Below, in pieces: positions 1 through 4,440 of a stretch of DNA of 6,203 nucleotides. The notes under the pieces are model-generated. The model worked only from the letters and a program-made list of their open reading frames with translations, made no database searches and was not told the origin of the DNA. Each line of letters begins with the position of its first letter. The stretch's first letter is position 1. The stretch is from Xanthobacteraceae bacterium (lineage in GTDB: Bacteria; Pseudomonadota; Alphaproteobacteria; Rhizobiales; Xanthobacteraceae): assembly GCA_030043285.1 (NCBI GenBank), contig JASHXZ010000515.1:1-6203 (forward strand). The letters run 5' to 3'. A program made the position numbers and the translations under genes.

Positions 1-2158
1 TCATGTTGTCGGCGTTGCAGTATTGCGCGAACGCCCGCGCGATGGCCTCGTCACGCCCGGTCATCGCCAGAAAGTCGAGGCTCGCATTTTTCAGCGCGCG
101 CCGGCCGGTGCTCTGTGCATCGGGTCGGTACGGGCCGGACGCGGTCATGCGCCAATAGGTATCGGTCAGCGCCGCATCGTGCCGCGCGCCGATCGCGGCG
201 CGCCAATGGCGCCGCGCTGCAAAGACGGCGTCCGGATCGACGTCGCGGCCGATTTCGCGCGCAATGTCGGCCTCGCTCGGCGGCATCAGCATCAGCGCGA
301 TGAACGCCGGCTCGAGCTTTTGCTCGGCCAAAATCGCGCCCAGCGCATCCACCAAACCCTGGTCCAGCCGTAGCGGCGCGCCGGCCCGGATCGCGGCAAC
401 GTTGCCGGTCAACAGCGCCATCGCCAAGGTCTGCACCGCCTGCCAGCGGTTGAACGGGTCGGAATCGCGCGCCGCGAGGAAACGCAGTTCGTTCGCCTCG
501 AGCGGCAGCGATAGCTTGATCGGCGCCGAGAAGCCGCGATTGAGCGAAGGAATCGGCCGTTCGGCGACCCCTGTGAAGACGAACGATTGGCTCGGCTGCG
601 TCAGTTCGAGCACGCCGCGTGCAAGCGGCTGACCGTCGAGCAGGATCGGCAGATCGGCGCCATCCTTGCCGACCAGTCCGAGCGCGAGCGGTATTGTCAT
701 CGGCTCCTTGCGCGGTTGGCCGGGCGTCGGCGGAGTTTTTTGCACCATGTCGAGCCGATAGGTCTTGGCGCGCGCGTCGTAATGCGGCGTGACGAAAACC
801 TCAGGCGTGCCGGCCTGCGAATACCAGCGCATGAATTGCGAGAGGTCGCGGCTGCTGACGTCGGCGAAGCACTGCACGAACTGCTCGACGGTCGCGGCCT
901 CGCCGTCATGGCGCTCGAAGTAGAGGTCCATGCCTTTGCGGAACAGCTCGGCGCCGAGCAGCGTCTTGATCATGCGCACCACCTCGGCGCCCTTTTCGTA
1001 GACCGTCGAGGTGTAGAAGTTGTTGATCTCGTGATAAAGCGTGGGCCGCACCGGATGCGCCAGCGGCCCGGCGTCCTCCACGAACTGATGCGAGCGCAGG
1101 CCGCGAACGTCGCTGATGCGCTCGACCGCGCGCGAGCGCTGGTCGGCGGTGAATTCCTGATCGCGGAAAACCGTCAGGCCTTCCTTGAGGCAGAGCTGAA
1201 ACCAGTCGCGACAGGTGATGCGGTCGCCGGTCCAGTTGTGGAAATATTCGTGCGCGATCACGGCTTCGATGCTGACGAAATCGCCATCCGTCGCTGTCTG
1301 TGGCGAGGCCAGCACGCATTTGTCATTGAAGATGTTGAGGCCCTTGTTCTCCATGGCGCCCATGTTGAACGCCGAGACCGCGACGATCATGAAAATATCG
1401 AGATCGTATTCGCGGCCGAAAGCCTCCTCGTCCCAGCGCATGGCGCGCTTGAGGCTGTCCATGGCGTGGGCGCAGCGGTTCTCCTTGCCGGGTTCGACAT
1501 AGATCTGCAGCGTCACCTTGCGGCCGGACCCGGTGGTGAAGCTGTCGCCGATGCGGGCGAGCTTGCCGCCGACCATCGCGAACAGATAGCTCGGTTTCTT
1601 GAATGGATCGTGCCACACCGCAAAATGCCGCGACGTGCCCGGCACATCGCCGTGCGCGACCGGATTGCCGTTGGCCAGCAGCACCGGCGCCTCGTTCTTG
1701 TCCGCTTCGATGCGCGTGGTATAGACCGCCATCACGTCCGGCCGGTCGAGGAAATAGGTGATGCGGCGGAAGCCTTCCGCCTCGCACTGCGTGCAATAGA
1801 TCGCGCCGGCGCGGTAAAGCCCGGTCAATTGCGTATTGCCGGTCGGATCGATCACGGTCTCGATCTGCAGCTCGAACGGCCGGTGCGGCGGCTGCGCGAT
1901 GGTGAGCCGGTCCGGCGTGGCGACGAAGTCCGCGGCCGGCAGCGGCTTGCCGTCGACCAGCAGCGCGGTGAGCTTGAGTTCTTCGCCGTCGAGCACGAGC
2001 GGCGCCGGCGCCCCTGCCGCATTGGGCCGCAGCTTCAGCTTGGCCCGCACGCGCGTCGCGTTGGGATCAAGCGAGACGTCGAGATCGACGGTGTCGATCA
2101 GCCAATCGGGCGGCCGGTAATCTTCGAGGCGAACGGGGCGGTGCTCTTCGGTGCGCAT
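1..2158 (-). CDS. pepN: Aminopeptidase N (M1 family zinc metallopeptidase), 3' end cut by window edge
   Basis: PepN is a cytoplasmic zinc exopeptidase that removes N-terminal residues from peptides late in protein breakdown. The frame is open for 719 codons and runs off the left edge. E. coli PepN has about 870 residues, so roughly 150 C-terminal residues are missing. Visible marks: CTQCEAEGFR and ITYFLDRPDV in the N-terminal beta domain; the substrate-binding GAMEN motif at residues 267-271; the zinc site HEYFH at 303-307 with the third ligand Glu326 (HEXXH-X18-E); and the catalytic Tyr387 in VYEKGAEV. Each lies six residues after its E. coli counterpart, so the catalytic core looks intact. 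The visible end, ...YCNADNM, matches the E. coli C-terminal helical domain. The ATG at 2158 is the only ATG, GTG or TTG start between the upstream in-frame TGA and the conserved region. No clear Shine-Dalgarno sequence precedes it. The protein is the bacterial PepN type rather than another M1 branch. Confidence 0.97.
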   Translation of the reverse strand, partial: MRTEEHRPVRLEDYRPPDWLIDTVDLDVSLDPNATRVRAKLKLRPNAAGAPAPLVLDGEELKLTALLVDGKPLPAADFVATPDRLTIAQPPHRPFELQIETVIDPTGNTQLTGLYRAGAIYCTQCEAEGFRRITYFLDRPDVMAVYTTRIEADKNEAPVLLANGNPVAHGDVPGTSRHFAVWHDPFKKPSYLFAMVGGKLARIGDSFTTGSGRKVTLQIYVEPGKENRCAHAMDSLKRAMRWDEEAFGREYDLDIFMIVAVSAFNMGAMENKGLNIFNDKCVLASPQTATDGDFVSIEAVIAHEYFHNWTGDRITCRDWFQLCLKEGLTVFRDQEFTADQRSRAVERISDVRGLRSHQFVEDAGPLAHPVRPTLYHEINNFYTSTVYEKGAEVVRMIKTLLGAELFRKGMDLYFERHDGEAATVEQFVQCFADVSSRDLSQFMRWYSQAGTPEVFVTPHYDARAKTYRLDMVQKTPPTPGQPRKEPMTIPLALGLVGKDGADLPILLDGQPLARGVLELTQPSQSFVFTGVAERPIPSLNRGFSAPIKLSLPLEANELRFLAARDSDPFNRWQAVQTLAMALLTGNVAAIRAGAPLRLDQGLVDALGAILAEQKLEPAFIALMLMPPSEADIAREIGRDVDPDAVFAARRHWRAAIGARHDAALTDTYWRMTASGPYRPDAQSTGRRALKNASLDFLAMTGRDEAIARAFAQYCNADNM

Positions 2159-2377: not shown

Positions 2378-2857
2378 TCATTGATCGGGGCAGGCGTACC
2401 AACCCGGGCCGCTATCGCCGTCGTCATACCAGCAAAGATAGACGCCGGCTGCATCCCACCAGTAACTGCCGCCGATGATCCAACCGTTGAAGCCGCTGCC
2501 GCCCCAGAAGTGACCATGACCATGATGGAAATGACCATGCCAGTGACCATGAGGGCCATGGTGCCCGCCGTGACCGTGCCCGTGCCCGCCGGGTCCATGG
2601 CCGCCGTGAATATGCCCGGCGTGAGCATGCCCGCCGTGACCGCCATGCCCACCATGACCGCCATGACCACCGTGGCCGCCATGACCACCGCCGCCATGAC
2701 CACCATGCCCGCCTTTCGCATATGCGGCTGTGCTACCCACGCCCATTACCAAGCCTGACACGCCAAGCGCCACAATAGAGCAAGCTCCGAGCATGGCGCC
2801 CGCTGCTAGTATCCGCGTCATATATTGACGTGGCTTCCTCGAGTCGTTTCCTGTCAT
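2378..2857 (-). CDS. Exported Gly/His-rich protein, putative metal binder (unrecognised family)
   Basis: This 159-residue protein matches no named family I can identify. It begins with a basic stretch (R7, K8, R10, R15) and a hydrophobic segment (about 16-42) ending in a signal peptidase I-like AYA-K junction after residue 47. Residues 49-77 are a GGH tandem repeat. Residues 78-116 are less regular GH, HH and HGH runs. In total 26 of residues 51-116 are histidine. The C-terminal 43 residues differ: rich in Trp, Tyr and Gly, with Cys142 and Cys156 that could form a disulfide, ending WYACPDQ. An exported protein that binds or buffers Zn, Ni, Cu or Co is plausible from composition alone. The ATG at 2857 has a good ribosome site (AGAGGG, about 5 nt spacing). 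A second ATG (residue 13) follows GAGGAAG and would also give a signal peptide. The CDF exporter gene lies 215 bp upstream on the same strand, which supports a metal role without proving it. Confidence 0.8.
   Translation of the reverse strand: MTGNDSRKPRQYMTRILAAGAMLGACSIVALGVSGLVMGVGSTAAYAKGGHGGHGGGGHGGHGGHGGHGGHGGHGGHAHAGHIHGGHGPGGHGHGHGGHHGPHGHWHGHFHHGHGHFWGGSGFNGWIIGGSYWWDAAGVYLCWYDDGDSGPGWYACPDQ
2627..2713 (-). repeat. Tandem 9-nt coding repeat encoding Gly-Gly-His
   Basis: Residues 49-77 of the His-rich protein are GGH units, nine in all plus one extra Gly-Gly-bearing interruption at 55-58. The 9-nt units vary at third positions (GGC/GGT/GGG, CAT/CAC), so the array is not a fresh identical expansion. 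It could still change length by slippage or recombination in units that keep the frame. Confidence 0.8.
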
Positions 2858-3072: not shown

Positions 3073-4440
3073 CTAGCGCATCGGTTCGGCGTGGCCGATG
3101 ACCCGCTGGATGGTCGGAAAACGCCGCCGCAAGCCGCGCTCGACTGTGTCGACCAGGTCGTGCACCGCGCGCACCGGCAGCGTCGGCTCAACGCGGCAAT
3201 GAAAGTTGACGATCTCGCCCTCGGTGGTTTCGCGTACGCGCACGTCGTGGACTTCGCTCAAGCCCGCAATGTCCTTGGCGAGCGCGGCGAGCGCCTCGCT
3301 CACTTGCGCGACGCGCGCCGCGGCAGCATCGTGGCCGGCAGTGACGTCGGCAGGTAGCGGCTCGATATGGGTTTCGACTTCGACCTGCGGGCCTAACTCG
3401 TCGCGCAAAGCCTCCTCGAGGCGGCTCGCGATGTCGTGGGCGGCGTAAAGCGGCATGACGCCTTCGACTTCGAGGTCCATCGACACGGACAGCCGGCTGG
3501 CGATCGCCTGCACCGCGACGTGATGAACGGCGAGGCCGCGATTGCGCGCGATCATCATCACCCGCTCGCGCACGGTTTCATTGTCGAGCGCGCGCGGTTC
3601 GGTGGTGATCGTCACCTCGGCTTGCGGCATCTCGGCGCGAATGGCGCGGGTGAGCTGGTCGTTGATCGCGGCGACCCGGTCGAGCGGCAGCGTGCGGCTC
3701 ACTCCGACGCCGAGATCGACGAACAGCACGGCGCCCGCCGGCCGGGCGCGCACGCGCTCGACGCCGACGATGCCGGGCGTGCGCCGCGCGATCGCCGCGA
3801 TTTGCTCGCTGACGCCGTGCGGCGCGGTATCGGTCAACGTGTCAATGGTGCGGCGGCCGAGCCGCCAGCCGGCGGTGCAGATGAACACCGCAACGACGAG
3901 CGCCGCTGCCGCATCGGCCCAGCCATAGCCGAGCGCGACGCCGCCAAGGCCGGCCAAAACCGCGACCGACGACCACATGTCGGAGGAAAAATGCAGGGCG
4001 TCGGCGTGCAGCGCCTCGCTGGACGTTTGCCGGGCGACGCGGCGGAGCACGCGGGCGCGAAAAAAATCGATCACGATCGAGCCGGCGATGACGGCGAAAG
4101 CCGGTATCGTAGCGGCAACCGGGTGCGACTGTGCGCCCATCAAACGTTGCAGCGCTTCCCAGATCACCACGCCGGTGAGCAGGAACAGCAAGGCGGTCTC
4201 GCCGAGCGCGGTGACGCTCTCCACCTTGCCGTGGCCGTACTGGTGTTCGGCATCGGCCGGTTTGCCGGAAATGCGCACCGCAAAATAGGTGAGCACGGTC
4301 GCGGAGAGATCGAGCAGCGAATGGCCGGCTTCCGACAGGATAGCCAGCGAACCGGTCAACAGCCCGATCACCGCCTTGGCGAGCGTCAGCGCCGCCGAAG
4401 CGGCGATCGAGCCGAGCGCCACCTTTTCCTTCTCGTTCAT
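3073..4440 (-). CDS. Cation diffusion facilitator (CDF) metal exporter with three tandem C-terminal domains
   Basis: CDF proteins are inner-membrane dimers that export divalent metals, usually Zn2+, in exchange for protons. The first 200 residues give the six-helix CDF core: helices near 8-29, 33-55, 77-100, 110-127, 147-170 and 175-192. Transport site A is His40/Asp44 in helix 2 (SEAGHSLLD) and His150/Asp154 in helix 5 (HFSSD). This HD-HD pattern is linked to zinc preference; E. coli YiiP/FieF has DD-HD. The YiiP site B pattern is kept as Asp63, His66 and His70 before GHGKVES. FieF is about 300 residues, but this protein has 455. The extra length is explained by three successive copies of the cytoplasmic dimer domain, near 209-283, 287-362 and 372-453. 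Copy 3 has the complete YiiP site C set (His398, His414, His427, His450, with Glu452 for the Asp). Copy 2 has His306, Asp322, His335, His358 and Glu360. Copy 1 has no equivalent His. The ATG at 4440 opens directly into helix 1; its ribosome site is weak. Confidence 0.93.
   Translation of the reverse strand: MNEKEKVALGSIAASAALTLAKAVIGLLTGSLAILSEAGHSLLDLSATVLTYFAVRISGKPADAEHQYGHGKVESVTALGETALLFLLTGVVIWEALQRLMGAQSHPVAATIPAFAVIAGSIVIDFFRARVLRRVARQTSSEALHADALHFSSDMWSSVAVLAGLGGVALGYGWADAAAALVVAVFICTAGWRLGRRTIDTLTDTAPHGVSEQIAAIARRTPGIVGVERVRARPAGAVLFVDLGVGVSRTLPLDRVAAINDQLTRAIRAEMPQAEVTITTEPRALDNETVRERVMMIARNRGLAVHHVAVQAIASRLSVSMDLEVEGVMPLYAAHDIASRLEEALRDELGPQVEVETHIEPLPADVTAGHDAAAARVAQVSEALAALAKDIAGLSEVHDVRVRETTEGEIVNFHCRVEPTLPVRAVHDLVDTVERGLRRRFPTIQRVIGHAEPMR

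What the first reader, a model, noticed from the sequence alone, without database searches (positions are those of the whole stretch)
3073..3816. CDF metal exporter with a triplicated cytoplasmic domain and graded loss of metal ligands
Seen: after the six-helix core, three segments end alike (TITTEP, ETHIEP, IGHAEP) and share helix-strand spacing. Copy 3 has His398, His414, His427, His450 and Glu452, at spacings matching YiiP site C (232, 248, 261, 283, 285). Copy 2 keeps four ligand-type residues (His306, His335, His358, Glu360) with Asp322 replacing one His. Copy 1 lacks all His (Glu228, Asp242, Ala257, Thr279, Glu281). Known: typical CDF proteins carry a single such domain that dimerises and senses metal. 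Inference: copy 1 may be structural while copies 2 and 3 sense metal, giving stacked or multi-step regulation, or longer cytoplasmic arms in the dimer.
Basis: partly seen in the sequence, partly recalled or inferred. Interest (0 to 1): 0.7.

Follow-up and report, generated by a model that had tools for sequence, protein, structure and literature searches.

The report
Metal exporter with three cytoplasmic domains
This bacterial gene encodes a metal exporter that carries its cytoplasmic dimerisation domain three times in a row instead of once; the copy next to the membrane lacks the known metal-binding residues, while the two outer copies keep theirs almost unchanged across hundreds of relatives, so the outer pair is likely the metal-sensing part of an apparently unstudied type of exporter.

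Summary
Confirmed. The 455-aa protein (3073-4440, minus) is a cation diffusion facilitator (CDF) with three ZT_dimer domains, each above Pfam's cut-off when scanned alone. It is no oddity of this contig: 92 of 397 genomes of the order match the three-domain stretch; named members are in Bradyrhizobium, Aestuariivirga, Azospirillum and Xanthobacteraceae. In 440 distinct members each of the ten ligand-type residues of copies 2 and 3 is kept in 439 or 440, while the equivalent positions of copy 1 drift. Each copy forms its own clade, so the triplication looks old and single. Best reading: copy 1 is a metal-free dimerising coupler; copies 2 and 3 are the metal-binding regulatory module. Regulation, metal identity and the pairing of the copies are untested; the predicted arrangement is uncertain (pTM 0.51, 0.61). 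Eight searches of open papers listed none on a CDF with several such domains. New variant of a known kind.

The parts
3073..4440 (-). CDF exporter with three tandem C-terminal domains, 455 aa
   Evidence: TIGR01297 243.6 bits (cut-off 82.35)
3835..4440 (-). six-helix transmembrane domain (residues 1-202)
   Evidence: PF01545 149.5 bits; six long helices in the model
3979..4323 (-). transport site A: H40, D44 (TM2), H150, D154 (TM5), an HD-HD set
   Evidence: alignment to YiiP; 439, 440, 439, 440 of 440 members
4231..4254 (-). site B: D63, H66, H70 in the TM2-TM3 loop
   Evidence: alignment to YiiP; 440 of 440 each
3592..3828 (-). CTD copy 1 (residues 205-283), no recognisable metal site
3355..3591 (-). 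CTD copy 2 (residues 284-362), ligand-type residues H306 D322 H335 H358 E360
   Evidence: PF16916 45.5 bits; profile hits to the CTDs of 6vda/2zzt and of Shewanella YiiP; conservation
3316..3354 (-). linker between copies 2 and 3 (residues 363-375)
   Evidence: between the last strand of copy 2 and the first helix of copy 3 in the model
3076..3315 (-). CTD copy 3 (residues 376-455), ligand-type residues H398 H414 H427 H450 E452
2..2158 (-). pepN, M1 aminopeptidase, cut by the window edge; recurrent downstream neighbour
   Evidence: PF01433 181.2 bits; same strand, downstream in 23 of 25 loci with at least 2.5 kb of downstream sequence

Best explanation
This is a CDF metal exporter, likely for zinc, of an alphaproteobacterial subfamily in which the usual single cytoplasmic domain occurs three times, the membrane-proximal copy lacking the known metal ligands and the two distal copies keeping nearly invariant ones that likely sense metal. 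Shown: three ZT_dimer domains; intact transport site A (HD-HD), site B and the equivalents of YiiP's charge interlock (K72, D204); no recognisable site in copy 1; fixed ligand-type sets in copies 2 and 3; separate clades for the three copies. Inferred: copy 1 pairs with copy 1 of the partner and passes movement to the membrane helices; copies 2 and 3, when cytoplasmic metal rises, bind it across a domain-domain interface (as CzrB and YiiP do) and close, which stabilises the dimer and tunes export. So holding the dimer and sensing metal, done by one domain in YiiP, are likely divided between domains here.
For: Three hits, each well over the cut-off. All ten ligand columns of copies 2 and 3 are among the 28 of 160 columns with weighted identity of at least 0.98 (hypergeometric P 5.8e-9, columns treated as independent); copy 1's five equivalents have 0.27-0.71. 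Copy 1 keeps other positions, such as R231, R233, G236, R249, and K72 and D204, which align with YiiP Lys77 and Asp207 (interlock: PMC6465983 passages), are in 440 of 440. Each copy is its own clade (support 97/89, 99/99, 98/92). Copy 3 folds like the CzrB CTD in its zinc form. In CzrB a peripheral zinc is bound by His258 of one monomer and His280/Glu282 of the other (PMC7864060 passages); copies 2 and 3 have a matching set one residue wider (H335, H358/E360; H427, H450/E452). The distant member L130 has His where copy 2 otherwise has Asp322, which fits a ligand position. An exchange to HD-HD in site A decreased Cd and maintained Zn transport (PMC5703985 passage; the protein is not named in the part I saw).
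Against: No metal binding, transport or regulation has been measured. The inter-domain arrangement is not predicted with confidence (pTM 0.51 full length, 0.61 copies 2+3). Site C in YiiP may serve dimer stability rather than sensing (PMC10617992 passages: expected to stay occupied). Some members lose ligands: L102 (H358Q, H427Y), P0086 (D322A), L132 (H398Q, H427R), L136 (H450R), and L103, which also lacks the second half of copy 3. The 440 sequences are the nearest relatives of three queries (120 listed for each) plus loci that had to match over 430 residues, and their effective number is about 64 at 80% identity.
Confidence: 0.65

Rival explanations
1. The extra domains are mainly architectural: metal in copies 2 and 3 is a permanent structural cement that makes long, stable cytoplasmic arms or a binding platform for a partner protein, with no sensing.
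For: In YiiP site C has 33 nM affinity at pH 7, and the authors expect it to stay occupied and ensure dimer stability (PMC10617992 passages). Fixed ligand sets fit a structural metal as well as a sensor. Copy 2 is the most conserved copy (mean 57% identity of the window's copy to 14 distant members at most, against 47% for copy 3 and 40% for copy 1), as a platform might be.
Against: Metal-dependent movements of isolated CTDs are documented for other CDFs (PMC10617992 passage; PMC7864060 passages). No partner is known.
Confidence: 0.25
2. Heterotypic sensor, a special form of the best explanation: copies 2 and 3 of one chain pair with each other, so every protomer carries its own built-in CTD pseudo-dimer, and only copy 1 dimerises between protomers.
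For: Both halves of a shared site are present in copies 2 and 3 and absent in copy 1. The one member of 440 with two ligand losses (L102: H358Q in copy 2, H427Y in copy 3) lost two residues that would share one metal in a 2:3 pair and not in 2:2' and 3:3' pairs (by my count 4 of the 45 possible pairs are of this direct kind).
Against: L132 lost H398 and H427, both in copy 3, which fits homotypic pairing better. The two-copy model has pTM 0.61 only. Mean-field coupling analysis gave no clear 2:3 interface.
Confidence: 0.25
3. Neutral leftover: the copies are a tolerated tandem duplication without a distinct role.
For: Tandem CTDs also occur elsewhere: some other genomes of the phylum have two-CTD CDFs whose second copy looks degenerate.
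Against: Ten of ten ligand columns are fixed over a widely spread family with separate clades for the copies; of the 92 matching genomes of the order, 91 keep the whole three-copy stretch (at least 242 of 253 residues).
Confidence: 0.04

Closest known systems
YiiP/FieF (E. coli, Shewanella), CDF zinc exporter with one CTD
   Same: six-helix core, site B, charge-interlock residues, CTD fold and order; E. coli FieF aligns with residues 7-284
   Different: YiiP has one CTD with a full site C and DD-HD in site A (PMC6465983 passages); here site A is HD-HD, CTD 1 has no such site and two further CTDs carry the ligand sets; FieF equivalog score 206.6 against a cut-off of 420
CzrB CTD (3byr/3byp)
   Different: the solved entries are isolated CTDs; that full-length CzrB has one CTD is recalled, not tested
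MamM CTD
   Different: copy 1 has Ala257 where the peripheral-site His would be; MamM shares the common two-domain architecture (PMC7170241 passage)
Two-CTD CDFs in other families of the phylum (L115, L116, L117, L123, L124; weaker second copy in L118, L119)
   Same: tandem CTDs after a CDF core
   Different: two copies, 401-426 aa frames; by eye the first CTD has the canonical His/Asp set and the second is degenerate, the reverse of this protein; only one second copy (L115, G849:C88) is over Pfam's cut-off. Distant: 72-111 bits to the window's protein, against over 380 for the three-CTD members except L132, L103 and L130

Membership tests
CDF superfamily | Cation_efflux core (PF01545) and TIGR01297 over cut-off | tested here: met
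   149.5 bits (cut-off 26.6); 243.6 bits (cut-off 82.35)
CDF superfamily | site A residues on TM2 and TM5 | tested here: met
   H40/D44/H150/D154 align with YiiP D45/D49/H153/D157
Zn-type CDF | HxxxD on both TM2 and TM5 | tested here: met
   motif as described in PMC10932157 (passage)
Zn-type CDF | transports zinc | not testable with these tools
   needs a transport or tolerance assay
FieF/YiiP equivalog | NCBIfam equivalog score over cut-off | tested here: not met
   206.6 against 420 (NF050169) and 184.4 against 447 (NF007064)
FieF/YiiP-like architecture | single CTD with site C | tested here: not met
   three CTDs, the site absent in the first
ZT_dimer domain (each copy) | Pfam gathering score | tested here: met
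   48.5, 45.5, 50.9 bits against 26.7
CTD metal sensor | metal-dependent dimer closure | not testable with these tools
   needs protein

The most novel reading that the evidence does not exclude
A CDF exporter with a built-in two-domain metal sensor: each chain carries its own copy 2:copy 3 CTD pseudo-dimer that binds metal at two unlike mixed sites (HDHHE and HHHHE ligand sets), while the metal-blind copy 1 is the sole dimer clutch to the membrane core, so that one exporter reads metal at two set points and couples them to transport.
Probability: 0.25. Interest if true: 0.7.

Novelty: new variant of a known kind. Interest (0 to 1): 0.5.

Why it matters
CDF proteins are usually described as a membrane core plus one regulatory CTD (PMC7864060 abstract), and whether that domain is a sensor or a structural clamp is hard to settle because one domain does both jobs. 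Here the jobs appear to be split between copies, in a family present in culturable genera such as Bradyrhizobium and Azospirillum, so each can be removed separately. The database names shown for members are only 'cation-efflux pump' or 'cation diffusion facilitator family transporter'.

Tried and rejected
Assembly artefact: rejected, the same stretch is in single-contig genomes (for example G047, G206, G228) and in 440 distinct sequences. Chance repeats: rejected by Pfam scores. Graded decay of metal sites: rejected. A riboswitch upstream (as for some Mn exporters, recalled): nothing in the window at Rfam gathering thresholds. The Gly/His-rich ORF 2378-2857 as a partner: no Pfam family and found in 1 of 32 relative loci searched, so not a conserved partner; an earlier composition screen of 29 loci found none and missed that one, so it is no evidence. 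Pairing of copies by residue coupling: uninformative, top pairs were spread over all domain combinations. Pairing by ligand-loss patterns: L102 for 2:3, L132 against, undecided. Counting multi-CTD CDFs over the phylum: the list was cut, so I looked at 17 chosen genomes only. In the structure comparison of copies 2+3 the listed rows cover copy 3; copy 2 rests on Pfam, on the profile match to 6vda/2zzt/YiiP and on the model's secondary structure. Outside the class: none of the 17 matching genomes of 398 lay outside the window's class, but how many of the 398 did is not stated. Rows dropped: loci matching fewer than 430 residues (such as L014, L021, L022, L092, L103) were left out of the 440, so that set cannot by itself show that two-copy members are absent. 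In the CTD tree, two single CTDs on very long branches (L008, L023) fall beside copy 1 with weak support (82/67, 85/36), against four to five that fall beside copy 3.

Literature: eight searches of the open PMC library; each lists only its best 3 to 30 papers, and none of those listed is, by title and abstract, about a CDF with several CTDs. I saw passages, not whole papers, of PMC1868760, PMC10617992, PMC5703985, PMC7864060, PMC10932157, PMC6465983, PMC7170241; a first look for tandem or duplicated CTDs in PMC5703985 found no such term. Subscription papers, for example a 2013 clade study of CDF proteins (recalled, not seen), were not available.

Full report

Register of the metal positions. 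The alignment to E. coli YiiP (ungapped over the CTD) and the spacings give: YiiP His232/248/261/283/Asp285 (PMC6465983 passages); copy 1 E228/G244/A257/T279/E281; copy 2 H306/D322/H335/H358/E360; copy 3 H398/H414/H427/H450/E452. Glu as the last ligand is as in CzrB (Glu282; PMC7864060 passages).

A widespread family. A search with residues 203-455 matched 92 of 397 genomes of the same order (34 of 142 genera; 91 of them as one stretch of at least 242 of 253 residues, one split at a frame break), 10 of 385 of the class (eight over the whole stretch, one truncated in copy 3, one single-CTD protein) and 17 of 398 of the phylum sample (15 whole, plus the same truncated and single-CTD cases), none outside the window's class. 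Named members: Xanthobacteraceae, Pseudolabrys, Rhodoplanes and other Hyphomicrobiales assemblies, Bradyrhizobium, Aestuariivirga, and plasmids of Azospirillum sp. TSA2s and B510. Of 13 genomes of the window's genus, 11 show exactly three ZT_dimer matches, one shows four and one, where the gene runs into a contig end, shows one (in G001 and G010 the frame is also cut by a contig end but holds three copies).

Conservation. I collected 441 sequences (the window's protein, the 120 listed hits of each of three protein searches, and loci matching over 430 residues); 440 are distinct, with an effective number of 64 at 80% identity. Copy 2 ligands are kept in 440, 439, 440, 439, 439 and copy 3 ligands in 440, 440, 439, 440, 440; of the copy 1 equivalents, E228 is in 252, A257 in 54, T279 in 402, E281 in 136 and G244 in 89. 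The ten ligand columns all belong to the 28 of 160 columns of copies 2 and 3 with weighted identity of at least 0.98. So the pattern is two-state, not graded. Fourteen further, mostly distant members were then read (16 rows, L125 repeating L102 and L131 repeating L103): counting Asp for Glu360 as kept, ten keep all ten ligands, one (L130) has His for Asp322, and L132, L136 and L103 lose some. Site A (HD-HD), site B and the interlock pair K72/D204 are kept in 439 or 440 of 440.

Origin. In a tree of 61 CTDs (81 columns, so weakly resolved) each copy is a clade of its own, and copy 3 groups with five single CTDs of other CDFs (88/85); two further single CTDs, on very long branches, fall weakly beside copy 1. 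The triplication thus seems to predate the family's spread. It is not the only tandem: five loci of other families in the phylum (L115, L116, L117, L123, L124; frames of 401-426 aa) have a second CTD at E below 1e-4, with weaker ones in L118 and L119; by eye the first CTD is canonical and the second degenerate (ten regions fetched from 17 genomes that were chosen mostly for many matches).

Mechanism. CDF CTDs bind metal between two domains: in CzrB one His from one monomer and His-x-Glu from the other, in YiiP His261 from the neighbour, and isolated CTDs move on metal binding. Copy 1 has neither half of such a site but sits where the YiiP CTD sits, after intact interlock residues; I infer that it dimerises and transmits. 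Copies 2 and 3 have both halves; I infer that they bind metal and set dimer closure. Whether they pair 2:2' and 3:3' or 2:3 is open: the models are not confident (pTM 0.51, 0.61), L102 (H358Q with H427Y) favours 2:3, L132 (H398Q with H427R) favours 3:3'. The HD-HD site points to zinc but no substrate was tested.

Neighbours. pepN, an M1 aminopeptidase (a zinc-enzyme family, recalled), lies downstream on the same strand in 23 of the 25 full-length genome-contig loci that hold at least 2.5 kb of downstream sequence; in ten of them its match starts within 120 bases of the end of the CDF match. It also follows the CDF in loci with 1.5 kb flanks such as L049, L054, L056, L058 and L108, but is not within 1.5 kb in the seven Bradyrhizobium-type loci L040, L043, L047, L048, L053, L057, L096 (the genus is inferred from L057, identical to Bradyrhizobium proteins). 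Most of the 25 are from related groups, so common descent may explain part of it. In Azospirillum the gene instead follows an ABC transporter pair and precedes a mgtC/sapB gene.

Verdict. Real, conserved and, among the open papers that my searches listed, undescribed: a new architectural variant of the CDF exporters, with a specific and testable division of labour.

Noticed in passing
window 2-2158 (-) and loci L062-L093: pepN (M1 aminopeptidase) follows the three-CTD CDF on the same strand in 23 of 25 loci with enough downstream sequence, in ten within 120 bases (L068: 2, L083: 19, L091: 33), suggesting a shared transcript.
   Followed up: partly
window 2378-2857 (-): Gly/His-rich 159-aa ORF (26 His, 52 Gly) with, by eye, a signal-peptide-like start, between CDF and pepN; a similar stretch in L062 only, of 32 loci. 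Possibly a secreted metal-binding protein.
   Followed up: partly
L113, L114: Azospirillum plasmid copies sit between an ABC transporter permease/ATPase pair and a mgtC/sapB gene, all on one strand.
   Followed up: partly
L115, L116, L117, L123, L124 (weaker: L118, L119): A separate group of CDFs with two CTDs, the second apparently degenerate, in other families of the phylum.
   Followed up: partly
L130: Distant three-CTD member (35% to L102) with His at the copy 2 position that is Asp322 elsewhere.
   Followed up: partly
L103: Diverged member whose copy 3 stops half way and whose copy 2 lacks H306 and H307; a natural loss of the module or a broken gene.
   Followed up: no
window residues 306-307 of the CDF: A second His, H307, beside the copy 2 ligand is in 440 of 440; four distinct distant members lack it (L103, L130, L132, L134). 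Its role is unclear.
   Followed up: no
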